DNA of 23,735 bases from a virus. Of this stretch, positions 2,914 to 23,708 are shown one piece after another (within the stretch, counting starts at the first letter, position 1; each line of letters begins with the position of its first letter). The notes under the pieces are model-generated. The model had not been told where the DNA came from, searched no databases, and worked only from the letters and a program-made list of their open reading frames with translations. Made by a program: the position numbers and the translations under genes. The stretch is taken from positions 1 to 23,735 of IMG/VR virus record IMGVR_UViG_3300037117_000083; one strand, given 5' to 3'.

Positions 2914-3246
2914 TCATGCTGCACTCCCGAGCAGGTTCTCCACCTTCGACCATGTCTCGTCGCCGACGATGCCGTCGACCATGAGCCCGTTTTTCTTCTG
3001 GAACGCAGCCACGCGGTCCTTGGTGGCCTGCGAGTACTCGAGCATGGCCTGGGCCGATGCGATCGCGGTCGCCGATGCCACGGTCGGATCGGCGCCGGCT
3101 GGCGCGGACTTCATCACCGTCTGCAGGATGCGGAAGATGTCGGGCGAGAGGCGCAGCACTGTGTCGAGCCCGCCCATCTTGGCGACGATGTCTTCGATGT
3201 CAGCGCGGTTGTTGACCAGGACGTCGAACGCGGTTCCGATGCTCAT
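2914..3246 (-). CDS. Small phage protein with a peptidoglycan-binding-like C-terminus
   Basis: 110 aa. The start ATG at 3246 overlaps the portal stop by 4 bp (ATGA), so the two are probably translationally coupled. Residues 1-70 are helical with an Ala-rich stretch. Residues about 75-108 (TKDRVAAFQKKNGLMVDGIV then GDETWSKVENLLG) match the repeat seen in PG_binding_1 domains: V..FQ...GL..DGIVG..TW. No signal peptide is seen. In a portal-adjacent virion gene this domain could contact the cell wall during infection, or be a reused structural fold. The domain call is fairly firm and the role is inferred. Confidence 0.7.
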   Translation of the reverse strand: MSIGTAFDVLVNNRADIEDIVAKMGGLDTVLRLSPDIFRILQTVMKSAPAGADPTVASATAIASAQAMLEYSQATKDRVAAFQKKNGLMVDGIVGDETWSKVENLLGSAA

Positions 3247-6200
3247 TCCGGTTTCTCCTGCAAGAGTTCATCGCCGCTGCTCTTGGGCAGCCTCGCCTGG
3301 CGCGCGGCTTCGATCTTGGCGGCGCGCTCGGCATAGGCCTTGTCGCGCTCGGCCTTTTGCTCGGGCGTGAGCGGCGCGTCTTTGAAGAGGTCGCGGTGGT
3401 GGGATGGCGGCCGCGTGAGTCCATACTGGGGCATCGTGAAGGTCTGCCGCTCGCCGGGCGCGCCGCCGCCTTCGCTCTCGGGCTTGCGCTTGAGGAATCC
3501 AGGCAGCTCCGGCATGTCGGTCTTCTTGGCGCCGCCGGCCTTCCCGCCGGTCGCCCCACCCTTTCCGAACTTGCCATCGGGGCGCCGCGGGTGGTCGCCC
3601 TCTTCCCAGAACCCGAGCGCGCCTTCGTCCATGGCGATCCCGAAGCGCCCGGCGATGTCATGCTTCCTGGCCACCAGCTTGTCGGCCAGCGCCTTGTCGC
3701 CGCCGCCGGCGAGCACGGTGTCGCGCACGTCCTCGTCGGGGATCTCGGTCACGCGCTGCGCCGAATCGCGCAGCTGCTCCTCGGTCATCGACCCGAACAC
3801 GCGCGCCGAGTCGCGGTTCATGTTCTTGTCGCGCAGCGTGTTGATCTCTCCCACCTGGTTGCCGAAGTGAGCGCCCTTGGGCGCGCCCTGCGCCCGGTAG
3901 GAGAGCGCGCCGCCCATGTCGAGCGGGGTGGCCTTGCCGGCGACGACGCCGAGGTTTTCGCCGCCGAGCCCGACCGCATCCCAGTTCGCGAGCCAGGCGT
4001 GGGCCACGAAATCGGCCTGCGCGGCCTTGATCTCCGCCGGCGAGAGCTTGCTGGCGTTGTCCTTGTCGAGCTTGGCCATCTCGGTCGCGATGTGGCCGCC
4101 GCCCTTGACCGGCCGGTAGTTGAGCGTGGGCGCGCCGGCGAGGTCGTAGAGGCTGGCCGCGATCAGTTCGTTCTTCACATGGTCGGGGCTCTTGCCCTTC
4201 TTGACGTAGTACTTCTTGCCGTCCGGGGCCGCGTAGACGCCCCCCGGGTTCGAGCCCATCTGGGCCCCGACCTTCGTGAGCCTCGCCGGGTCGAGCTCGC
4301 TGGCGGGCTCCGCTGGCCCGGCATGGGCCTTCCCGGAGGCGCCCGAGCCGGAGCCGAACTTCCCGTCCGGCGCCCGCGGATGATCAGCCTCCTGGAACTC
4401 GGCGTCAGCCGCCTGTCCCGAAGTCGTAATCGGCGAACGGGTCCTCGTCCCGGCCGCCTGATCTTGAAAAGGGATGACGTTGCTGTCGCCACCTCCCGGG
4501 GCGGCGGCCTTGTCTGGTGATTCGCCCAGGCCCGGGCCGGCCTCGCCGAGCGGCTGCGGGCGGCCGCCCTCCGGCTCGAGGCCCGCCTCCTCCTCCTCGC
4601 GCAGGTCGGGCACGTCCTCCGGATCGAGGTCGCCGTAGGGGAGCTTGGGATCGGCGATGGCGATGCCGCGCACCTCGGCCGGGGCGATCGCGCCCATGTC
4701 GACGTAGATCTGGTGGCGCTCACCGTCCATCTTCTGGAGCTCGGCCTCCTCCTTCTTGCTCATCTCCCACAGCGGCTCGAAGTCGAAGATGATCTCCTCG
4801 TCGACCCTGCCGAAGAGCGAGAGCTGCTGGAAGTTGACGACGCGGGTGAGGTTGGGCCGCATGAAGCGGTTCTGGTAGGCGGTGATCGTGTCGTAGTAGG
4901 CGCGCATGGTCCCGTCGGTCGAGGCGTTGAGCCCGCTCGGGTTGATGCCCGTGAACTTGATGTCGGGGATGCGGACCACGCTCATCATGTGCTCCTGCGC
5001 CTGCGCCTGCAGCTCGTGGAGCCCCGAGAGCGACGCGCTCACGTTCTTGAAGTCCTCGGTCGCCTTGTTGAGGACGAACGTGCCCTGGTTGTCGCGCAGC
5101 GCGTTGAACATGGCCACGCGCAAGAGCACGCCCTCGGGGCCGCCGCCTGACTGGAGGATGGTCTGCATGTCGGTCATGAGCACCATGACCGAGAACGAGT
5201 GGATCAGCGCCCCGACGCTCTCGCGGGTCGTGAGCCAGATGTCGACGTAGGGCTTGGCCATCTGCGAGAGCGAGAGGCCGCCGAAGGAGAACGCGGGCTT
5301 GAGCAGGTCGGGGACGACGTGGCCGATGAAGGTCGGCAGCCGCGAGAGGTGCAGCTGCTTGCCCATGACGTACCAGACCTGGGGATTGTACCAGTCGTAC
5401 TTGAGCGGGTTCTGAGCGTTGTAGGTGGTCGGGTAGCTCCACGCGGCCTCGATCGGCTTGACGGACTCGAACGAGCCCTTCTTGACCTTGCTGGCGCTGA
5501 TCTTGTCGCGGCCGTTGCCGACCGACGTCATGAGCTCCTTGTCGCCGGCGCCGTCGAGGTCGACCCCGAAGTTGAGGAACAGATGGGAGCGGCCGAAGAA
5601 GCCGTCGTCGCGGCAGATCGTGTACATGTGGTCGCGCAGCTCGAGCCGCGCCTGGTCGTCGTGCAGCTCCTTGATCATGTCGGACTTGCCGGCCTTCTTG
5701 ACGCGGTCCTCGCGGCGCCCCTTGCGCTCGTCGGCGCTCACCGGCTTGCCGCGCAGCGCCGCCTGGTCCTCGTCCTCCTTCTCCTTCCTGCGGTCCTCGT
5801 CGGCCTCGCCGCCGCTCACGTCGAAGTCGATCCACTTGCGGGTGGCGTCGTCGGCGATGGTCTCGGAGATGACGCGGTACTCGGGGCGCAGCGCGAGCTC
5901 GGAGAGGAACGGGTAGCCCAGGAACTGGAGGCCCTCGGCGCTGATGCTGCCGATCACGTCCCCGGCCCACTGGTTGCTCGCCCAGGAGATGCCCTCGTCC
6001 ATCGCCATCTGGAGGTCCTTGGGCGGCATGGCCTTCGGCGGGAACTGCGGCAGCCTGAAGGGGTCGAACTCGGGCCCGCGGTTCTTGGCGCGCGCGAGCG
6101 CCTTGCTCTGCTCGATGAAGCGCAGCGCCTGGCGGATGCCGATGGCGACCTTGGGCGCCTTTGGCTCGGCCGCGACCTTGTCCGCCGGCGCGGCGTCCTC

Positions 6201-6383
6201 GGCGGGCTTCGCCCCGATCGCGACGCCGGCCGCGATCATCTCCTGGCGCTTGCGCTGGATGGCGTCGATCGGCCGCCCGCTGATCATGGCCACGGCCTCA
6301 TCGGTGCCGCCGGCGGTGATCGCCGCCAGCTCGGCCTTGCTCCACCGGCCGGCTCCAGGCCGGGCCCCGCCATGCTTGCCCAT
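3243..6383 (-). CDS. Portal protein (DUF1073-like) with a C-terminal kinase-like domain
   Basis: 1046 aa, about twice the usual portal length. Residues 1-30 carry GGARPGAGRWSK, a signature more often seen at small-terminase N-termini. Residues about 110-590 are the portal body: RPEYRVISETIADDATRKW is the typical DUF1073 entry motif, and NGMNASTD-like and ITAYQNRFMRPNLTRVVNF segments follow. The portal forms the DNA-entry ring at the head vertex and docks the terminase. After an acidic Pro/Gly linker come two copies of a DHPRxPDGKFGxG motif (residues about 680 and 935) that flank a domain of about 200 residues. That domain has GGVYAAPDGKKYYVKKGKS (a beta3-Lys-like site), HVKNELIAA (an alphaC-Glu-like site), NWDAVGLGGENLG (a catalytic-loop-like site) and TPLDMGGAL (a metal-Asp-like site). 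This resembles HipA/PI-kinase-type folds. The C-terminus has MPQYGLTRPP and a charged helix. The portal call is strong and the kinase-like call moderate. Confidence 0.82.
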   Translation of the reverse strand: MGKHGGARPGAGRWSKAELAAITAGGTDEAVAMISGRPIDAIQRKRQEMIAAGVAIGAKPAEDAAPADKVAAEPKAPKVAIGIRQALRFIEQSKALARAKNRGPEFDPFRLPQFPPKAMPPKDLQMAMDEGISWASNQWAGDVIGSISAEGLQFLGYPFLSELALRPEYRVISETIADDATRKWIDFDVSGGEADEDRRKEKEDEDQAALRGKPVSADERKGRREDRVKKAGKSDMIKELHDDQARLELRDHMYTICRDDGFFGRSHLFLNFGVDLDGAGDKELMTSVGNGRDKISASKVKKGSFESVKPIEAAWSYPTTYNAQNPLKYDWYNPQVWYVMGKQLHLSRLPTFIGHVVPDLLKPAFSFGGLSLSQMAKPYVDIWLTTRESVGALIHSFSVMVLMTDMQTILQSGGGPEGVLLRVAMFNALRDNQGTFVLNKATEDFKNVSASLSGLHELQAQAQEHMMSVVRIPDIKFTGINPSGLNASTDGTMRAYYDTITAYQNRFMRPNLTRVVNFQQLSLFGRVDEEIIFDFEPLWEMSKKEEAELQKMDGERHQIYVDMGAIAPAEVRGIAIADPKLPYGDLDPEDVPDLREEEEAGLEPEGGRPQPLGEAGPGLGESPDKAAAPGGGDSNVIPFQDQAAGTRTRSPITTSGQAADAEFQEADHPRAPDGKFGSGSGASGKAHAGPAEPASELDPARLTKVGAQMGSNPGGVYAAPDGKKYYVKKGKSPDHVKNELIAASLYDLAGAPTLNYRPVKGGGHIATEMAKLDKDNASKLSPAEIKAAQADFVAHAWLANWDAVGLGGENLGVVAGKATPLDMGGALSYRAQGAPKGAHFGNQVGEINTLRDKNMNRDSARVFGSMTEEQLRDSAQRVTEIPDEDVRDTVLAGGGDKALADKLVARKHDIAGRFGIAMDEGALGFWEEGDHPRRPDGKFGKGGATGGKAGGAKKTDMPELPGFLKRKPESEGGGAPGERQTFTMPQYGLTRPPSHHRDLFKDAPLTPEQKAERDKAYAERAAKIEAARQARLPKSSGDELLQEKPE

Positions 6384-7536: not shown

Positions 7537-7772
7537 ATCACGCCTCGGCGCCGGATCGTCGGCCTGCCCTGCGTGAGCTTGAATCCCTCGACGAGCCGTT
7601 GCTTGTCGACCGCCGCGAGGTACTCGAACCGGAGCGGGACTTTGCCGCCGAGCCTGGTGGCGATGCCGATGCCGGGCGCCCGGCGTTTGATCTCGGCCAC
7701 GGCGGCGTCCTGGCGGCTCTTGCGCCTGGCGGTGCGGCGCTGGTCGCGGAAGCATCGGCCCTTGTGGGACAT
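7533..7772 (-). CDS. Small basic phage protein (79 aa)
   Basis: ATG at 7772 with an AGAGG Shine-Dalgarno 7 bp upstream. The N-terminal half is very basic (MSHKGRCFRDQRRTARRKSR). It is followed by VAEIKRRAPGIGIATRLGGK and LRFEYLAAVDKQRLVEGFKL. A nucleic-acid-binding role is possible from charge alone, and the family is not recognised. It is the first gene after the tRNA in the direction of transcription, and an AT-rich stretch with inverted repeats precedes it. Confidence 0.55.
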   Translation of the reverse strand: MSHKGRCFRDQRRTARRKSRQDAAVAEIKRRAPGIGIATRLGGKVPLRFEYLAAVDKQRLVEGFKLTQGRPTIRRRGVM

Positions 7773-7843
7773 CGCGCGGCCTCTTGAATTTTGAAACCAG
7801 CGACCTCTCTAATCAAAATCTTGAAATCGCACAAGAGGGAAAT
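7773..7843 (-). promoter_or_regulatory. AT-rich intergenic island with inverted repeats, between the tRNA and the next gene
   Basis: This short island is clearly richer in A/T than its flanks. CCTCTTG at 7780-7786 has its perfect inverse CAAGAGG at 7832-7838. Between them are TCTTGAATTTTGAAA (7782-7796) and TCAAAATCTTGAAATCG (7813-7829), related short motifs. A very similar motif, TCTTGAATT then ATTTTGAAATCG, sits at 21991-22011 beside a candidate promoter. It could be an operator, or a hairpin that marks the 3' end of the tRNA transcript. No clear -10/-35 pair was found. Confidence 0.35.
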
Positions 7844-7919
7844 TGGCGCGCCCGCGAGGGATCGAACCCCGGACCCCCCGGTTTAGTGCCGGGTGCTCTG
7901 CCAGCTGAGCTACGGGCGC
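7844..7919 (-). tRNA. tRNA with CUA anticodon (candidate amber suppressor), CCA encoded
   Basis: A full cloverleaf can be drawn. The acceptor GCGCCCG/CGGGCGC has 7 bp, followed by discriminator G and an encoded CCA (7846-7844). The D arm is GCTC/GAGC around AGCTGGCA, the anticodon stem CCCGG/CCGGG has 5 perfect pairs, and the T arm is CGGGG-TTCGATC-CCTCG with one G-U. The anticodon loop is CACTAAA, which puts CTA at positions 34-36, so it would read UAG. Position 33 is A, whereas U33 is almost universal; this is a real oddity. The acceptor and D-arm sequence resemble bacterial tRNA-Arg. It lies 15 bp after the pth2 stop on the same strand, so the two are probably co-transcribed. Confidence 0.8.
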
Positions 7920-7934
7920 GTTTTGGGTTGGACT

Positions 7935-8303
7935 TCATTTCATCAGCGAGAACCTCCTGGTGATGGGCTTGGCGGTCGCGCGCTCGACGGGGCCGATGCC
8001 CACGGCGGTCGGGACCGGCAGCGCGTGGTCCGGGATACCCTCGACCACGATGGAGCATGGGATGCCGGCGGCGCGCGCGGCGTCGTAGGCCTGGCGCAGC
8101 TCGTGTTCGGTCCTGGCGGAGAGGGTGATCTTGGTGCTGTCGCCGTCAGCGTCATGATAGGCGTCGCGGACGTCGGGCGGGGCAGCGATGTATGCGGAGA
8201 GGAAAGCGTGGCCCGCCTGGGAGGCGGCCTTGCCCGCGGTCATGTGGAGGTCGGACCGGACGAGGGCATAGAGGACTGGGGCGGCTGCGATCTAGTTGGT
8301 CAT
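7935..8303 (-). CDS. Peptidyl-tRNA hydrolase type 2 (Pth2), with an in-frame UAG at codon 4
   Basis: Pth2 cuts the ester bond of peptidyl-tRNAs that fall off ribosomes and so recycles the tRNA. From ATG 8303 the frame reads MTN-UAG-IAAAPVLYALVRSDLHM and then TAGKAASQAGHAF. The signature R-x-D-L-x-M-x-x-GK-x-A-x-Q-x-x-HA of Pth2 is present at residues 16-33, with a later TKITLSARTEHELRQAY, AAGIPCSIVVEGIPDHA and PTAVGIGP. The total of 122 codons is normal for the family. ATG 8303 has an AGGAG 8 bp upstream. The next in-frame ATG (8243) lacks an SD and would remove the first beta-strand and R-x-D-L. So the gene is either read through the amber codon by the tRNA just downstream or is disabled. 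The family call is strong; expression is inferred. Confidence 0.8.
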
Positions 8304-8316
8304 GGCGGCGGCTCCT
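8292..8316 (-). promoter_or_regulatory. Strong ribosome binding site with a three-codon AUG-ACC-AAC-UAG leader for pth2
   Basis: AGGAG (8316-8312) is spaced 8 bp from ATG 8303. After ACC and AAC comes TAG (8294-8292), in frame with pth2. As written it is an SD-led minigene of three sense codons fused to the pth2 frame by an amber codon. Confidence 0.65.
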
Positions 8317-8361
8317 GCGGGTTGTTGATGCCCGCTCATCTGAGCCGTCGCCTGCCGTTTG

Positions 8362-8961
8362 TCAAGAGCGCGCAAAATGCGCCCTGGACATCTTTGCTCG
8401 CGTTTCTGGCGAATGCCGTCGCCCCGTCCAAGATTTATTACCCATATGCGCCGCAGATAGCTTGGCCCGGGTTTCAGCTGACGGGAATTTCCCCGAATGA
8501 GCTATGCTTAATTTTTTCTGAACCTCCGGAGTGGCCAGCGTGGCGGAAATTTTTGCTTTTTGCTCAGCTGACATTGGGCCGCGGCGAAGTGCAGCTTCTC
8601 TATATACAGCAATGGCTTCCGGTGTGTTGCGCTGAGCTTTCAATCTAGCCCGTGCTTCTAGCGACCATTTCACGCCAGCACGAGTACCGGCAATCCTGGC
8701 AGCGTTATATTTCGGCTTCAAAATATCGATAGCGCGTTGCTCGAAGAATATAAGTTCAGAACCAGAGCAAATTAAAAGAACTGAGAACGAAATACCGACA
8801 TCGTATTTGCGCCAAGCGGCTTGGAGACCCGGGCAGTGATGCTCTCCTCTTTTGAGCATCGTTCGATGTTTTCCCCACCGCTTGGGAATATTCAAAGAAC
8901 TGCCGATGTACCGATGTCCGCTTGGCGCCGTTATTGCGTAAATTCCGCTCTTGATCTGCAT
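8362..8961 (-). CDS. GIY-YIG endonuclease with NUMOD3-type repeats (free-standing homing endonuclease-like)
   Basis: 199 aa. GIYAIT at residues 6-11 and HRYIGSS at about 16-22 are the GIY and YIG halves of the nuclease. An Arg in NIPKRWGKHR and a Glu in FFEQRAID match the expected catalytic region. The C-terminal half carries three short repeats of the NUMOD3 type (SAEQKAKIS, SAETRAKLSAAHMG and SPETRAKMSRAH), used by such enzymes for DNA contacts. Phage Seg-like enzymes have this layout and spread by cutting homologous alleles. The ATG at 8961 overlaps the upstream TAA. The gene is noticeably poorer in GC than its neighbours, in line with recent insertion. It lies just upstream of pth2. Confidence 0.88.
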   Translation of the reverse strand: MQIKSGIYAITAPSGHRYIGSSLNIPKRWGKHRTMLKRGEHHCPGLQAAWRKYDVGISFSVLLICSGSELIFFEQRAIDILKPKYNAARIAGTRAGVKWSLEARARLKAQRNTPEAIAVYREAALRRGPMSAEQKAKISATLATPEVQKKLSIAHSGKFPSAETRAKLSAAHMGNKSWTGRRHSPETRAKMSRAHFARS

Positions 8962-12544: not shown

Positions 12545-15500
12545 TCAACGCCGCGGCTGGTGCCCTCTCTTGATGATCGTCGCCACCATGTCGGGCGTGA
12601 TCACCATGGCAGTCGCGCCCTTGGCGAGCCGCATCACGGCGGCGTCGGCCAGGTTCGGGCTCTTCATGCCGTTCGGCTTCTTGTTTATGAGGATCTTGCC
12701 GGCGCCGTTGATGCTGTAGGTCGGCTGGCTGAGCTCGGAGACGAGGGCGAGGTAGTGCGGGCACGAGCTGCTGATCGAGACGATCTCGTCGGGGTTGCAG
12801 CGCACGCCGTCGGTGACCCACTTGAAGGTCTTCTGCACGCGCCGGCGCAGCGACCACCAGGCCTGCGCCTTGCGGTTGGCGAAGTAGTCCTGGTTGGTGC
12901 GCCCGGCGTCGCCGTCCGAGCCGATCGTGCCCTCGACGGTGCCCTCGGGGTCGAGGACGCCGTCGGAACCGCGGAAGATGTCGACCTGCAGGGCACGCAC
13001 CCCGCTGGCCACGCGCTGCTGGTTGATCATGCGGGCGTCGCCGCGCACGCCGGCGCCCAACCCGTCGCCGTCGTAGCGGAATCCCGGGTAGCCGAGATCG
13101 TCGCAGACCTTGAAGGCGCTCTGCGTGGTGGCATAGAGGTCGGCGCCCTTGCCGCTCCACTGGTCGAGGTAGTCGACCTCGATGCCGGTGGTGCCACAGA
13201 GCGCGTTCTTGTCGACGCCCTCGTCGGCCACGTCGAGCGCGAGGCCCTTGGCGCCGGTCTTCGCGATGCCGAGCTTCTGGCGGGCATCGACGCAGGCGCG
13301 TATCCAGGCGCCCGGGATGACGATGCCGTGGACCGACGCCGAGTAGTCGCGGTCGACCTCCTGGGCGATGGTGACCGGGTCGAGGCCCTTGCCGCCCTCG
13401 TCCTCGCCGGCGCCGAGCAGGCGGTACCACTCATCGTCTTTTCTCGGGTCGCTATTGTGTGTGACGATGCAGTCGTCCGTCAGGTAGAGGCCATCGCTGG
13501 CCTGGACCTTGAGGCATTGGCATTCCTTGATGCCGACAATCTCAATCCCGGTGATGCTGCGCCTGACTGGATACTTGGCTGCCGGCTTGAAGGCTTGCGC
13601 CTTTCTCGTCAAACGGAAAGGAACGACGCCATCAGGCAGCCGAATGCTGACCAAGTATGATTCGCGGACCTTGCAGATGCGGCCGCCCGGGAACATGCGG
13701 GTCGCGGGCTGCTTGATCTTATGCAACTTCGCCGTCCCTCCCAGCGAACGAGCGACGAACATGACGTCTTCGGCCAACCGCAGGGATGTCGTCGCATGAC
13801 GCGCCGCACCTGGATCAGTTCTGGAGACCGACCCATCCGTGTCCAAAAGGCCCCGCAACAAGTCGACCCGATCATCGATCGACGATGCGGTCTTGTAAAT
13901 CTCCGGAATGAATTTCGTGTGAGACTCGCTGCCGCTAAGGCCCAGGGACCGAATTGCCGCATTGACCGGATTGTGAAGCCCGCGCCCCTTGGGGCCGCCG
14001 CGACGAGATGCATCTGCGGCCACGCGGTACTGGATGCCGCGCACCCACTTCATGATGCATCCGCTCGGGAGCCTTTCATTGACATGGTCGATGATCTCCG
14101 CGTCGCCGACCGTCAAATAATGCGCGGTATTCGATTTGGTCGGCAAGCTGCCGTCGCCCAACAGGCAGCCGAGAACATAAGGATGAAGAGGCAAATCGAT
14201 GACCGTGAACGAAACCGGTTGAGTCATCGGCACCTGATATCGATGAGTGCGAAATCCGCGGACATCTTTCCGGATGTAGTCTTTCATGATCTCCGAAAGC
14301 GGCAGCGTATGGCGAATGTGCCGCCTCGATGCCCGCTGATCGCCGGCCTTCACCACGGTCCACAAATGATCGGCACACGTCTCTGTGCTGGCCCCGTCGC
14401 TGAATGTAACGCGATGCACCTCTTTTTTCCCTTGCGGGAAAACGCCGACGACTTTCGTTGGCTTTCCATTCGCACCGAAGATCGAATCGCCCGTGCTGAT
14501 CTGACCCATCAAGCGCCATCCCGTCGGGGTCAAGATTTTTGCGTCGAGCGGCTGAGCCCGCCAGTCGAACACGAAAACGTCGATCTTGCCCTCGTGGCGC
14601 TTCTTGGCGAACGGGTTGTTCATGCCGTTGACGCTGCTCATGTCGATGCGGCAGTTGGTGGTCTGCGAGAGCGACATGTCGATGAGCTCTGGGCGCTCGA
14701 GGTGGGCGGAGTTATGAGTCACGATGAAGTTGTCTGTCAGATATAGCCCATCTGGAGCGCCGACCGTGATGCATCGGACCGGTTTCCTGCCAATGTGTTC
14801 CACTGAGACAATAGTTCTCGTCAGCGGATGCTTGCGCGGCTTTAACTTTTCCAGCTTCCGCCGCAACCGGAATGGGACCATCCCGGCGGGGAGCGCGATC
14901 TGGATCGCATACTGATCTCGGTGTCCGCGCCGGTCAGGCTTGACGTTGAGATATGCGAGGCCACCGAGGGATTGCACCAGAAATCGGACATCGGCTGCAA
15001 GCCGCACCGATGATGTGAAGAAAGCAGCGTATCCATCTGAAGCTGAGCCATCTGTATCCATCAATCCCTGCAGCAAGCTGAGACGATCCGAGGTCTTCGC
15101 CAGCTTATAACGGTCTGGCACCAATTTGCCGGGACCAGTCGAGCCTGCGATGCCTGCTGCGATCACAGCCAGTTTGGCTCTGCTCATCGGATATGCGCCG
15201 CCAGCCACTCGGCCCCGCCGCCCAAGAGCGTCGACGATATTGTAAGTATATCTCCCATCGAACGCTCCGATGATCACGCCCTTGGGCAACAAGCAGCGCA
15301 CATTCTCGATGATCTCCTTGTCTGCTGAAGTCACGCGCACGGTGCCGCTATTCAAAGCTCCGTCTCCGAGCAGAACGCCAACGATATAAGGGTCCAGAGG
15401 AAGTTCTTCCGCGTAGGCTGGCCGAGATGGCCTAAACTCCACGGGCTCGCAAACTGGAATGCGATAACGATATTGAATCTGTCCTCCTGGGGATTCGTAA

Positions 15501-16366
15501 GAGAGCCTATCAATGAGCTCATGCGTTCGTAGCGTCATCTTTTTCCGAGGGAACCCCAACACATGCTCGACTGTCCAGAGATGATTCGAGCTGCATTCCG
15601 TGCTGGTTCCGTCTCGGAAAGTTACTCGGAAGACATCATGAACGCCACATTCGTTGACATGAGTCACTCGCCGCGAATGACCATCTCTTCCGATTACCCA
15701 GGAGCCGGGCCGCATGTCGGCCATCTCGCTTAAGCCGAATGGAGTGACAATCTTGGCATCCAACGGCTGTGCCTCGTCCACAAGGTAGATCGCCTCGCGG
15801 TCGCCGCGGCCGATCTGGTCGCCGGCCTCGCCGGTGAGGAGCGAGTCGGTGTCGGGGAACCGCAGCCGCATGAACGGCGCGTCGCGCCACTCGACCCACC
15901 CGGCGCGGAACTCCTCCGGCAGGTGCTTCATGAACATGCGCGCCTTTGGCAGCAGCGGCTTCATGGTGCCGATCTTGTCGACCAGGTCCTCCTTGCGCGA
16001 GCCGCAGCCCACGGCCATGCCGTCGTAGAGGATGCAGAGCGTGCAGGCGGTCGCCATCGCGAGCCAGGAGATGCCCATGTCGCGGGACTTCTCGCAGAGG
16101 CCGGGCGTCTGCGAGCGCCAGTGCTTGATGAGCCACTCGACCCACTCGCGCTGGCGGTCGAAGAGGATGAACGGGACGAGGGTGGGCAGGTTGCGCTCGA
16201 CGTTGCGCGGGTCCCAGGTCACGCCCCAGTCGTTGATGAAGTCGGCGACGTGCTCGCGGTAGTAGGCCCTGAGCTCCGGCAGGCATCCCGGGTTCTCGCG
16301 GATGGCCGCGAGCGCGGCGAGGCGGCCCTTGAGGACGTCGGAGTAGTTCGGGTTCTTCCAATCCAT
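12545..16366 (-). CDS. Terminase large subunit precursor with two inteins
   Basis: 1273 aa as translated and 551 aa after removal of both inteins, a normal TerL length. TerL pumps DNA into the head through the portal and cuts it. The start is ATG 16366, which overlaps the upstream stop (TGATG); the 45 codons open upstream are shadow. Exteins: residues 1-198 hold the ATPase N-part with CEKSRDMGISWLAM (a Walker A-like loop) and the Walker B EAIYLVDE. Residues 553-603 hold SAHLERPELIDMSLSQTTN, then MSSVNGMNNPFAKKRH (coupling motif) and FDWR. Residues 972-1273 continue with SDPRKDDEWY and the RNase H-like nuclease with Asp in ALDVADEGVD, YDGDGLGAG and NLADAAVM. Both inteins sit at conserved ATPase-region motifs, so splicing should be needed for packaging. 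Confidence 0.92.
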   Translation of the reverse strand: MDWKNPNYSDVLKGRLAALAAIRENPGCLPELRAYYREHVADFINDWGVTWDPRNVERNLPTLVPFILFDRQREWVEWLIKHWRSQTPGLCEKSRDMGISWLAMATACTLCILYDGMAVGCGSRKEDLVDKIGTMKPLLPKARMFMKHLPEEFRAGWVEWRDAPFMRLRFPDTDSLLTGEAGDQIGRGDREAIYLVDEAQPLDAKIVTPFGLSEMADMRPGSWVIGRDGHSRRVTHVNECGVHDVFRVTFRDGTSTECSSNHLWTVEHVLGFPRKKMTLRTHELIDRLSYESPGGQIQYRYRIPVCEPVEFRPSRPAYAEELPLDPYIVGVLLGDGALNSGTVRVTSADKEIIENVRCLLPKGVIIGAFDGRYTYNIVDALGRRGRVAGGAYPMSRAKLAVIAAGIAGSTGPGKLVPDRYKLAKTSDRLSLLQGLMDTDGSASDGYAAFFTSSVRLAADVRFLVQSLGGLAYLNVKPDRRGHRDQYAIQIALPAGMVPFRLRRKLEKLKPRKHPLTRTIVSVEHIGRKPVRCITVGAPDGLYLTDNFIVTHNSAHLERPELIDMSLSQTTNCRIDMSSVNGMNNPFAKKRHEGKIDVFVFDWRAQPLDAKILTPTGWRLMGQISTGDSIFGANGKPTKVVGVFPQGKKEVHRVTFSDGASTETCADHLWTVVKAGDQRASRRHIRHTLPLSEIMKDYIRKDVRGFRTHRYQVPMTQPVSFTVIDLPLHPYVLGCLLGDGSLPTKSNTAHYLTVGDAEIIDHVNERLPSGCIMKWVRGIQYRVAADASRRGGPKGRGLHNPVNAAIRSLGLSGSESHTKFIPEIYKTASSIDDRVDLLRGLLDTDGSVSRTDPGAARHATTSLRLAEDVMFVARSLGGTAKLHKIKQPATRMFPGGRICKVRESYLVSIRLPDGVVPFRLTRKAQAFKPAAKYPVRRSITGIEIVGIKECQCLKVQASDGLYLTDDCIVTHNSDPRKDDEWYRLLGAGEDEGGKGLDPVTIAQEVDRDYSASVHGIVIPGAWIRACVDARQKLGIAKTGAKGLALDVADEGVDKNALCGTTGIEVDYLDQWSGKGADLYATTQSAFKVCDDLGYPGFRYDGDGLGAGVRGDARMINQQRVASGVRALQVDIFRGSDGVLDPEGTVEGTIGSDGDAGRTNQDYFANRKAQAWWSLRRRVQKTFKWVTDGVRCNPDEIVSISSSCPHYLALVSELSQPTYSINGAGKILINKKPNGMKSPNLADAAVMRLAKGATAMVITPDMVATIIKRGHQPRR
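13454..14557 (-). mobile_element. TerL intein 2, class 3 type with LAGLIDADG endonuclease (368 aa)
   Basis: It is inserted between FDWR and SDPRKDD, 51 extein residues after intein 1. It starts AQPLDAKILTP and ends LYLTDDCIVTHN before Ser+1. The class 3 triplet is Trp66 (ADHLWTVV), Cys348 (ECQCLKVQ) and Thr366. The endonuclease motifs are PYVLGCLLGDGSL (Asp135) and LLRGLLDTDGSVS (Asp241). Its first eight residues are identical to intein 1, and block order and spacing match, so the two are paralogues. They have diverged widely between motifs, which argues against a very recent duplication. Confidence 0.9.
14711..15772 (-). mobile_element. TerL intein 1, class 3 type with LAGLIDADG endonuclease (354 aa)
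   Basis: It is inserted straight after the Walker B Asp-Glu, leaving VDE | SAHLERP. It begins with Ala (AQPLDAKIVTP) and not Cys or Ser. It has block B SSNHLWTVE with Trp66, a late Cys334 (PVRCITVG), and ends LYLTDNFIVTHN with Thr352 and His-Asn, followed by Ser+1. Ala1 with this Trp/Cys/Thr triplet is the hallmark of class 3 inteins. The endonuclease motifs PYIVGVLLGDGAL (Asp137) and LLQGLMDTDGSAS (Asp241) both keep their acids, so it may be active. The DNA is lower in GC than the exteins. The junctions were checked codon by codon. Confidence 0.9.
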
Positions 16367-21997: not shown

Positions 21998-22189
21998 TTA
22001 TTTTGAAATCGTCCAAGATTTCAAAATCGGCTTGCGGGCAAGGGCGATCCTGGTTGCCGGTAATTTCGGCGTCCACCCCGGTCCGCCGGACGCCACCCGC
22101 TCACGGATTGTCGCGTACCCCAGCAGCAGGCTCTTTTCGAGGTCGTCCTGGGCGTCGTATTCGCGCTCCATTGGCTTTTGTCCCTTCAT
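21998..22189 (-). CDS. Small phage protein (63 aa)
   Basis: From ATG 22189: MKGQKPMEREYDAQDDLEKS, LLLGYATIRERVASGGPGWT, then a basic tail; ends in TAA. Starts at 22213 or 22171 are also possible. The helix plus RVASGGPGW is of a kind seen in small phage proteins next to methylase genes. It overlaps the methylase 3' end by about 89 bp, which is long. Either both are real or the methylase reading past about residue 500 is extended. Confidence 0.5.
   Translation of the reverse strand: MKGQKPMEREYDAQDDLEKSLLLGYATIRERVASGGPGWTPKLPATRIALARKPILKSWTISK
22000..22027. repeat. Perfect 11-bp inverted repeat
   Basis: ATTTTGAAATC at 22000-22010 and GATTTCAAAAT at 22017-22027 are exact inverses around GTCCAA. 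It lies at the 3' end of the small gene and just upstream of the candidate promoter. It is AT-rich with no T-run after it, so it fits an operator better than a terminator. Confidence 0.7.
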
Positions 22190-23708
22190 CTGACGGCGCT
22201 TCCTTGGCGACATCGCAGGCCGGCGAATACCAGACGCACTCCTTGTCGGTCGTAGTGCCTCCAGAGTAGGTCAGCCGGCCGCGATCCCACGGAACGGCCG
22301 TCCAGCCCGGCAGAGCATAGTCCCCGGCATGCCCGCATAGCGCCACCCGTAGATGCTGGTTGGCGCGCGCCCATGCGCACACCGCGTCCGCGACCGGAGA
22401 TCCCTTGCTGTAGAGCGCCTCGTAAGACCGATAAGGCGGATCGAGAAATACCGCCGTATCGTCTCCCCCAAAATGGTTGTTGAGACAGCGCGTCCAATCC
22501 CCATGCGTGATGCGGGTTCGCTCCAGCCTATCGGCGATGCGGCGCAACCAGACCATGGCGGTGCGGCCGCAGGAGGTCAGCAGCATGCTTTCGCCCCTCC
22601 CAGCGTTACCGGCGTGGGGGACTTGGCCAATGGCCTGGACGCCCCTCCCAGCGTCACTGGCGTGGGGGACTTTGCCAATGGCCTGGACGCCCATCCCAGC
22701 GTTACCGGCGTGGGGGACTTTGCCAATGGCCTGGACGCCACTCCCAGCGTTACCGGCGTGGGGGACTTGGCCAAACCAATCGCACCACCCTGATCCGATC
22801 CAGCAGCATTGCCCCCATAGCCACCATCCGGCGACCTTCGCATCACCCGGCCAGTCCGGATCATGGAGCGCCGCACCGACGCGCTCGCGTTGGGCCAGAA
22901 GCCAGCCATGCCGGGCACCGAGATCGATGTGCGAGACTGGATAATCGGCGGCCTCGGCCACAGCGGCCGCTTGAAACTTGGTCGCGCGCCAGAAATTAGC
23001 AATGAAACCGCTGGCGTCGTTGACGACCTCTAAGGACGCCGGGGCTGGCGCGGCGAGCAGGACCGCAGCCGATCCGCAGAATGGTTCGATGTATTGCTTG
23101 GGCGAGCCGAGCCGCTTCCATATTTCCGTTGCGATCGATCTCTTGCCACCGAAATAAGGGAACGGTGCCAATAATTCTGGCAGTTCGCCGCGGCCTGATT
23201 CGGCGTCATCTGCATCCCCTTGGATGGGCGGCTGATCGTCCCCGAAACCGGCCATGAAGTCGACCAATTGGAGGTTCGGAAAGCCCAAGAGCGGCATGTC
23301 AAATCCGGCCGTCTTGAGATCACTCAGCTCAGCACGGAGAATCGGCATATTCCACCCCGCGTTGAGTGGAATGGCGTTATCGGCAATGGCATAGGCCCGC
23401 TTCTGCGTCTCGCTCCATCCCGTTGCCACAAGGACAGGAACCTGTTTGAGCCCGATGGTCTGCGCCCCAAGAATTCGGCCATGCCCAGCTATGACCTGGT
23501 CGAGCTCGTCGATCAGAACCGGATAAGTGAAGCCGAATTCACGGATCGAATTGGCGATCTGCGCAACCTGCTCGGGGGAATGCGTGCGCGTGTTTTTTGG
23601 ATTAGCCAAAAGCGCGCTCACCAATCGGAAATCTCGGTGGTCAACTCCTATCGGCTTGACAACAGGCTCGGACCCCGCTCTTGCCGCCTTCGTGCTGCCT
23701 TTTCCCAT
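22101..23708 (-). CDS. ParB-like nuclease / Dam-type adenine-N6 methyltransferase fusion (535 aa)
   Basis: ATG 23708 has GGAG 6 bp upstream. Residues about 20-130 are a ParB/sulfiredoxin-type domain: NPKNTRTHSPEQVAQIANSI, FGFTYPVLID, VIAGHGRILGAQ. Residues about 180-480 are a Dam-like methylase: FPYFGGKRS (SAM entry), YIEPFCGSAAVLL (motif I), DPPY (motif IV, about residue 424) and CGHAGDYALPGW. It would methylate adenine in DNA, probably to protect phage DNA or alter regulation. Inside the target-recognition part lies a four-fold 16-residue repeat (VPHAGNAGxGVQAIGK). ParB-methylase fusions are known in phages. Confidence 0.88.
   Translation of the reverse strand: MGKGSTKAARAGSEPVVKPIGVDHRDFRLVSALLANPKNTRTHSPEQVAQIANSIREFGFTYPVLIDELDQVIAGHGRILGAQTIGLKQVPVLVATGWSETQKRAYAIADNAIPLNAGWNMPILRAELSDLKTAGFDMPLLGFPNLQLVDFMAGFGDDQPPIQGDADDAESGRGELPELLAPFPYFGGKRSIATEIWKRLGSPKQYIEPFCGSAAVLLAAPAPASLEVVNDASGFIANFWRATKFQAAAVAEAADYPVSHIDLGARHGWLLAQRERVGAALHDPDWPGDAKVAGWWLWGQCCWIGSGWCDWFGQVPHAGNAGSGVQAIGKVPHAGNAGMGVQAIGKVPHASDAGRGVQAIGQVPHAGNAGRGESMLLTSCGRTAMVWLRRIADRLERTRITHGDWTRCLNNHFGGDDTAVFLDPPYRSYEALYSKGSPVADAVCAWARANQHLRVALCGHAGDYALPGWTAVPWDRGRLTYSGGTTTDKECVWYSPACDVAKEAPSDEGTKANGARIRRPGRPRKEPAAGVRDNP
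22599..22790 (-). repeat. Four tandem 48-bp repeats inside the methylase gene
   Basis: The core CCCAGCG begins at 22599, 22647, 22695 and 22743, an exact 48-bp period. Each unit encodes 16 residues (VPHAGNAG followed by xGVQAIGK). Units differ by a few bases (for example ASDAG in one), and the frame is kept throughout. Confidence 0.85.

What the first reader, a model, noticed from the sequence alone, without database searches (positions are those of the whole stretch)
13454..15772. Two paralogous class 3 inteins in one terminase gene, 51 residues apart
Both start AQPLDAKI, both carry the Trp/Cys/Thr triplet and end VTHN|S, and both keep two LAGLIDADG acids. One is set right after the Walker B Asp-Glu, the other at FDWR|SDPRKD. 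More than half of the gene's codons (722 of 1273) are intein. Two class 3 inteins so close in one ATPase region offer a natural test of invasion order and of cross-splicing between the two.
Basis: partly seen in the sequence, partly recalled or inferred. Interest (0 to 1): 0.7.

Follow-up and report, generated by a model that had tools for sequence, protein, structure and literature searches.

The report
Two inteins in a phage terminase
A phage DNA-packaging gene carries two related self-splicing protein inserts only 51 residues apart; relatives elsewhere show that each belongs to its own older, site-specific lineage and came in separately, which makes this a well-placed but not fundamentally new example of a known phenomenon.

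Summary
The large-terminase gene (12545-16366, minus strand, 1273 codons) contains two complete class 3 inteins with LAGLIDADG homing-endonuclease domains. Intein 1 (354 aa, 14711-15772) follows the Walker B Asp-Glu. Intein 2 (368 aa, 13454-14557) lies 51 extein residues downstream, at DWR|SDPRKD. None of 78 related viral terminases carries either intein; both sites align without a gap. The class 3 hallmarks tested are intact in both: Ala1, the Trp/Cys/Thr triplet, His-Asn, Ser at +1 and the LAGLIDADG acids. The two are homologous (43% identical) but not copies of one another: intein 1 groups with Walker-B-site inteins of three other terminases (100/100), intein 2 with inteins one codon from its own site (100/99), and a sister pair is rejected (AU p = 0.011). 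Single-site carriers exist for each site, intein and extein trees conflict, and third-position GC is 0.60/0.71 against 0.96 in the extein. Two separate horizontal invasions, then ordinary splicing, is the best reading. Two-intein terminases, neighbouring inteins and Walker B class 3 inteins are published; I also found three PhoH genes with two class 3 inteins 38-42 residues apart. Splicing, homing and cross-splicing are untested. New member of a known kind.

The parts
12545..16366 (-). Large terminase (TerL) gene, 1273 codons including both inteins; spliced product predicted 551 aa
   Evidence: Open frame; phrog_2 terminase large subunit on the C-terminal extein; intein-free homolog L001 matches phrog_2 at 2.2e-24 and the Sf6 gp2 nuclease domain in the PDB at 3e-23
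15773..16366 (-). N-extein, codons 1-198, ending IYLVDE (Walker B Asp-Glu)
   Evidence: Aligned with 78 intein-free homologs
14711..15772 (-). Intein 1 (site 1, VDE|SAHL), class 3, 354 aa, LAGLIDADG endonuclease
   Evidence: Boundaries from homolog alignment; LAGLIDADG_3 34.2 bits; class 3 residues; site-1 clade 100/100
15575..15577 (-). Intein 1 block B Trp66 (class 3 triplet)
   Evidence: Invariant; coordinates
15362..15364 (-). Intein 1 first LAGLIDADG acid, Asp137
15050..15052 (-). Intein 1 second LAGLIDADG acid, Asp241
14771..14773 (-). Intein 1 block F Cys334 (predicted first nucleophile)
14711..14719 (-). Intein 1 block G Thr352-His353-Asn354
14558..14710 (-). Middle extein, 51 codons (SAHLERPEL...FVFDWR)
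   Evidence: conserved in homologs
13454..14557 (-). Intein 2 (site 2, DWR|SDPRKD), class 3, 368 aa, LAGLIDADG endonuclease
   Evidence: AlphaFold2 model mean pLDDT 91.3 matching intein PI-SceI Z 27.8 and class 3 DnaB intein 6bs8 Z 19.5; site-2 clade 100/99
14360..14362 (-). Intein 2 block B Trp66
14153..14155 (-). Intein 2 first LAGLIDADG acid, Asp135
13835..13837 (-). Intein 2 second LAGLIDADG acid, Asp241
13514..13516 (-). Intein 2 block F Cys348 (predicted first nucleophile)
13454..13462 (-). Intein 2 block G Thr366-His367-Asn368
13439..13453 (-). First five C-extein codons AGC GAC CCG AGA AAA: Ser +1 and a possible co-conversion trace (AGA AAA as in the site-2 carrier L291; CGN in all 23 GC-rich intein-free homologs)
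   Evidence: suggestive only
12548..13453 (-). C-extein, codons 972-1273, nuclease domain
   Evidence: phrog_2; Sf6 gp2-like nuclease by homologs

Best explanation
Two complete, probably active class 3 inteins sit in one Sf6 gp2-like large terminase. Each belongs to a separate intein lineage that lives at one place in this terminase family: one right after the Walker B Asp-Glu, the other about 51 residues further on. They came into this gene by two separate horizontal (homing-type) invasions, not by one copying itself into the second site. Mechanism: after translation, the block F Cys of each intein attacks its N-terminal junction (class 3 route, residue 1 being Ala), the N-extein passes to Ser+1, and the terminal Asn cyclises. 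Both excisions give a 551-aa terminase with a restored Walker B Glu and DWRSDPRKD motif. Shown: anatomy, empty sites in homologs, class 3 residues, fold of intein 2, separate lineages. Inferred: splicing, endonuclease activity, stepwise order of invasion and essentiality of splicing for packaging.
For: Exact anatomy. 78 intein-free viral terminases, sites continuous. Triplet Trp/Cys/Thr, Ala1, His-Asn, Ser+1 and both LAGLIDADG acids present; LAGLIDADG_3 above Pfam cut-off in each; PDB relatives are class 3 DnaB inteins; intein 2 model, pLDDT 91.3, matches whole PI-SceI (Z 27.8) and class 3 DnaB intein 6bs8 (Z 19.5, rmsd 1.5 A over 123). Single-site carriers: L240, L241, L276 (site 1 only), L161, L162, L291 (site 2 only); the five of these records searched hold just one class 3 intein each. 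Site-1 clade 100/100, site-2 clade 100/99; int1+int2 sisters rejected, AU p 0.011, lnL difference 99.9. Intein and extein trees conflict: intein 1 is sister to that of L241 (100/93), whose extein lies far outside; extein L240 groups with L161 and L291, whose inteins are of the other lineage. GC3 0.60 and 0.71 against 0.96 in the extein.
Against: No splicing or cleavage was measured. In DnaBi1 block B reads DxxH; here it is SxxH (intein 1) and CxxH (intein 2), shared by each whole lineage. The deeper relation of the two lineages is unresolved (71/77), so one may have arisen from the other long ago inside terminases. Lineage membership rests on four sequences each. Composition alone cannot date the arrivals. 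The AU test was named after seeing the tree.
Confidence: 0.88

Rival explanations
1. Intra-gene duplication: one intein copied itself from one site to the other within this phage lineage, so the two are recent paralogs.
For: Same class, both AQPLDAKI...VTHN, 43% identical; apart from same-site kin they are among each other's nearer relatives, and the two lineages form one side of a branch with weak support 71/77.
Against: Each has closer same-site relatives elsewhere (intein 1: 50% to L241, 44% to L276; intein 2: 51-53% to L161, L291, L162); sisterhood rejected, AU p 0.011; lineage-specific indels; no long shared DNA (12 bases at most). An ancient jump between sites before the lineages spread is not excluded.
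Confidence: 0.05
2. One or both inteins no longer splice, or splice only conditionally, so the gene is a regulated or partly broken terminase.
For: Class 3 DnaBi1 splicing is redox-controlled by a cysteine pair (PMC6195587); intein 2 has extra cysteines at 61 and 346 next to the block F Cys348.
Against: All splicing residues and a fully open 1273-codon frame are kept; a non-splicing insert right behind the Walker B Glu should destroy ATPase activity (inference). Comparable class 3 terminase inteins splice fast in E. coli (PMC5050341).
Confidence: 0.1
3. Co-homing: both inteins with the 51-codon spacer arrived together as one block from a doubly occupied donor terminase.
For: Distance of 153 bp is short enough for one conversion tract (inference); AT-ending codons are enriched within 10 codons of the sites (6 of 40 against 15 of 511).
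Against: No doubly occupied relative was found; only single carriers; the two inteins differ in GC3 (0.60, 0.71); the spacer itself keeps high GC3 apart from its ends; co-homing of neighbouring inteins is inefficient in Haloferax (PMC10643990).
Confidence: 0.1
4. Assembly or sequencing artefact joining two intein copies.
For: The record is a metagenomic fragment of 23735 bases.
Against: Frame open throughout, residues conserved, each intein embedded in the matching extein context, no long shared DNA between copies on which an assembler could switch.
Confidence: 0.02

Closest known systems
Mycobacteriophage Gaia TerL1-e class 3 intein (KJ567043; PMC5050341)
   Same: Class 3, LAGLIDADG, in a large terminase, inserted at the same point of Walker B (NE|S in Gaia, DE|S here); splices in E. 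coli
   Different: Different terminase family; 31% identical to intein 1; block B DxxH; single intein
Inteins of terminases L240, L241, L276 (site 1) and L161, L162, L291 (site 2)
   Same: Same terminase family or near it, same lineages (100/100 and 100/99), same or adjacent insertion point
   Different: Only one site occupied in each; site-2 relatives insert one codon earlier, W|T or W|C instead of WR|S
Double class 3 inteins in phage PhoH genes (L163, L236, L301)
   Same: Two class 3 LAGLIDADG inteins in one ATPase gene, 38-42 residues apart; second-site inteins group with PhoH LPG-site inteins of other genomes rather than with their neighbour
   Different: PhoH, not terminase; sites at the Walker A Lys and at LPG|T
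Cyanophage Mic1 TerL (PMC7156551) and crAss-like Delta cMAG OBYQ01000140 TerL (PMC7886860)
   Same: Two inteins in one large terminase
   Different: Mic1: Cys-bounded inteins, one in the ATPase and one in the nuclease domain; crAss: two Hint-Hop inteins; neither described as class 3
Haloferax mediterranei MCM-a/MCM-d inteins (PMC10643990)
   Same: Two neighbouring HEN-bearing inteins in one ATPase, single and double carriers in the population, +1 Ser requirement
   Different: Archaeal helicase; homing interference was measured there, nothing measured here
M. smegmatis DnaBi1 (PDB 6bs8; PMC6195587)
   Same: Class 3 splicing fold and triplet; Z 19.5 to the intein 2 model
   Different: Mini-intein without endonuclease; the second DnaB intein of that gene is unlike it in rate and stress response

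Membership tests
Class 3 intein | No nucleophile at residue 1 | tested here: met
   Ala1 in both, boundary fixed by gap-free homologs
Class 3 intein | Trp (block B), Cys (block F), Thr (block G) triplet | tested here: met
   W66/C334/T352 and W66/C348/T366, invariant in 18 inteins
Class 3 intein | C-terminal His-Asn and Ser/Thr/Cys at +1 | tested here: met
   HN|S twice
Class 3 intein | Block B DxxH as in DnaBi1 (usual, not universal) | tested here: not met
   SxxH in site-1 lineage, CxxH in site-2 lineage; Gaia has DxxH. Not treated as defining, since the triplet is
Class 3 intein | Block F branched intermediate and splicing | not testable with these tools
   Needs expression
Intein in general | In-frame insert absent, without a gap, from homologs | tested here: met
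   78 homologs, none with an intein; IYFVDE|SAHLER and FHWR|DDPRKD types where the sites are covered
Intein in general | Hint fold with inserted endonuclease | tested here: met
   Intein 2: model pLDDT 91.3, PI-SceI Z 27.8 over 319 residues. Intein 1 model is poor (pLDDT 68.9) and was not searched
Class 1 or class 2 intein | Cys/Ser/Thr at residue 1 (class 1) or Ala1 without the class 3 triplet (class 2) | tested here: not met
   Ala1 with full triplet
LAGLIDADG homing endonuclease | Two LAGLIDADG motifs with both acids | tested here: met
   D137/D241 and D135/D241; LAGLIDADG_3 34.2 and 31.4 bits against 22.5
LAGLIDADG homing endonuclease | Cleavage of the empty allele | not testable with these tools
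   Needs an assay
Large terminase (Sf6 gp2-like) | Homology to TerL, nuclease domain | tested here: met
   phrog_2; PDB Sf6 gp2 and 8dkr by homolog L001 and profile A4
Large terminase (Sf6 gp2-like) | ATPase domain with Walker A and B | tested here: inconclusive
   Walker B Asp-Glu invariant in A4, but the PDB profile match covers only the nuclease domain; Walker A not assigned
Recent tandem intein duplication | The two copies are each other's nearest relatives | tested here: not met
   AU p 0.011; same-site relatives closer

The most novel reading that the evidence does not exclude
Intein 2 shows a one-codon change of register: its three relatives sit after W and bring Thr or Cys in place of the native Arg, while here the intein sits after W-R and Ser replaces the native Asp/Glu. 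Together with AGA-AAA flanking codons shared with a site-2 carrier, this would mean that the intein carries its own +1 nucleophile into alleles that lack one, by co-conversion of a few flanking codons, and can re-enter one codon away.
Probability: 0.3. Interest if true: 0.55.

Novelty: new member of a known kind. Interest (0 to 1): 0.36.

Why it matters
It gives a natural series for one gene family: neither intein (78 terminases), site 1 only (3), site 2 only (3), both (this one). With the published Haloferax result that neighbouring inteins hinder each other's homing and therefore must accumulate stepwise through single carriers, this is a phage case whose single carriers can be named. The site-2 group also poses a concrete question: how an intein persists where most alleles lack a +1 nucleophile. 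Practically, it warns that automatic annotation misses such terminases (Pfam and NCBIfam find no terminase in the full-length protein).

Tried and rejected
Recent duplication within the gene: rejected by tree, indels and DNA dissimilarity. 'AQPLDAKI' as evidence of close kinship: rejected, as it is common across the class. Pattern scan for W-x-x-x-AQPLDAK junctions at site 2: no exact match in viral contigs, since codon variants or +1 offsets escape it; the carriers came from protein searches instead. Pattern scan for VDE|AQPL[DY][AS]: one contig, L240. Structure of intein 1 with a 4-row alignment: pLDDT 68.9, not used. Invasion order from GC3 (0.60, 0.71): not conclusive, donors unknown. Amber-suppressor tRNA as a sign of recoding: of 23 candidate genes one ends in TAG, most in TGA, so nothing in this window depends on it. 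Tori and Perler 2011 (PMC3133030) is not held and could not be read. A family search with an untidy reference failed on stop codons.
Full report
What is there. On the minus strand, 12545-16366, lies one open frame of 1273 codons. Codons 199-552 and 604-971 are two inserts of 354 and 368 residues; the 51 codons between them and the two ends make up 551 extein codons. The ATG at 16366 overlaps the upstream gene's end by one base, which supports the start. The full-length protein gets no terminase match in Pfam or NCBIfam, but PHROGs sees a terminase in the C-terminal part, and an intein-free homolog (L001, 67% identical) matches phrog_2 and the Sf6 gp2 nuclease domain in the PDB (profile A4).

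Why these are inteins. Seventy-eight viral contigs encode relatives of the spliced extein; none has either intein, and those that cover the two sites continue through them without a gap, for example IYFVDE|SAHLER and FTFHWR|DDPRKD. Both inserts contain a LAGLIDADG_3 domain above the Pfam cut-off; their nearest PDB sequences are class 3 and related inteins. The model of intein 2 (mean pLDDT 91.3) matches whole PI-SceI at Z 27.8 and the class 3 DnaB intein 6bs8 at Z 19.5, 1.5 A over 123 residues. The intein 1 model was poor and is not relied on.

Why class 3. Both start with Ala and carry Trp66, a block F Cys (334 or 348), Thr (352 or 366), His-Asn and Ser+1; all of these except the +1 residue, together with the two LAGLIDADG acids, are invariant in 18 inteins aligned. 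The class 3 triplet and mechanism are as described for DnaBi1 (PMC6195587). One departure: block B is SxxH in the site-1 lineage and CxxH in the site-2 lineage, not DxxH.

Origin. Searches of viral and genome collections with the inteins brought out six single-site carriers. Walker-B-site inteins: L240, L241 (a Glaciecola MAG) and L276, each with site 2 empty. Site-2 inteins: L161, L162 and L291, each with site 1 empty. In a 75-row tree the site-1 inteins form one clade (100/100) and the site-2 inteins another (100/99); forcing intein 1 and intein 2 together costs 99.9 log units, AU p = 0.011. The two lineages may be sisters, but support is only 71/77. The extein tree disagrees with the intein tree: intein 1 is sister to that of L241 although the L241 terminase lies far outside, and the L240 terminase groups with L161 and L291, whose inteins are of the other kind. 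Third-position GC is 0.60 and 0.71 in the inteins and 0.96 in the extein. Two separate horizontal arrivals explain all this.

Insertion detail at site 2. In 71 intein-free homologs the native residues are W-R-D/E/S (R in 66; D 46, S 11, E 6). The three site-2 relatives insert after W and have Thr or Cys where the Arg was; here the intein follows W-R and Ser replaces the usual acid. The nearest intein-free relatives of this gene have Asp or Glu there, so the Ser is not the local ancestral state. AT-ending codons are concentrated within ten codons of the two sites (6 of 40 against 15 of 511; p 0.002 by shuffling, but 0.04 to 0.16 with other distances, so this is suggestive only). The codons AGA AAA after site 2 recur in the carrier L291, while all 23 GC-rich intein-free homologs use CGN for that Arg. 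This would fit co-conversion of a few flanking codons with the intein.

Precedents. Two inteins in one terminase are published for cyanophage Mic1 (PMC7156551) and a crAss-like Delta phage (PMC7886860). A class 3 intein right after the Walker B acid is known in mycobacteriophage Gaia (PMC5050341); its DNA shows NE|S, the same point, with 31% identity to intein 1. In my own sample three PhoH genes carry two class 3 inteins 38-42 residues apart, and their second inteins group with those at the same PhoH site elsewhere, not with their neighbour. Neighbouring homing inteins were studied in Haloferax MCM, where both inteins home singly but interfere when both are to enter an empty allele, so that double carriers are expected to arise through single carriers (PMC10643990). 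The present gene and its six single-site relatives fit that expectation.

Mechanism and verdict. Most likely both inteins splice by the class 3 route to give a 551-aa terminase with an intact Walker B Glu; this step, endonuclease activity and the order of arrival are inferred. The finding is real and clean, but it is a new member of a known kind. Its value lies in the named allelic series and in the register shift at site 2.

Noticed in passing
window 7844-7919 (-): A well-formed tRNA (Rfam 54.6 bits, encoded CCA) with anticodon CTA, i.e. an amber suppressor-type tRNA; of 23 candidate genes in the window only one ends in TAG.
   Followed up: partly
window 8362-8961 (-): Free-standing GIY-YIG homing endonuclease with NUMOD3 motif, low GC3 (0.47), a third mobile element in the same fragment.
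   Followed up: no
L163:3125-6736, L236:3800-6835, L301:230-3001: PhoH genes with two class 3 LAGLIDADG inteins each, at the Walker A Lys and at LPG|T, 38-42 residues apart; the LPG-site inteins appear to start with Pro (PQPLDAK).
   Followed up: partly
L162:1398-2490: Site-2 intein whose length (1093 nt) is not a multiple of three; a frameshift after block B, either decay or a sequencing error.
   Followed up: partly
L279:3359-6352: Terminase-like protein (by eye, not tested) with a class 3 intein at RGGRK|TKFDFDE, about nine residues before its Walker B acids; grouped with the site-1/site-2 inteins in the quick tree only.
   Followed up: partly
window about 22600-22900 (-): Repeated unit KVPHAGNAGxGVQAIG inside the ParB_N + D12 methyltransferase protein (22101-23708).
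   Followed up: no
L166:4001-5062 and 7562-8665: One viral contig with two class 3 inteins in two different genes, which group together in the intein tree (95, quick tree), a possible case of spread between genes of one phage.
   Followed up: no
window 3243-6383 (-): Portal protein fused to a long C-terminal region (1046 aa in all).
   Followed up: no
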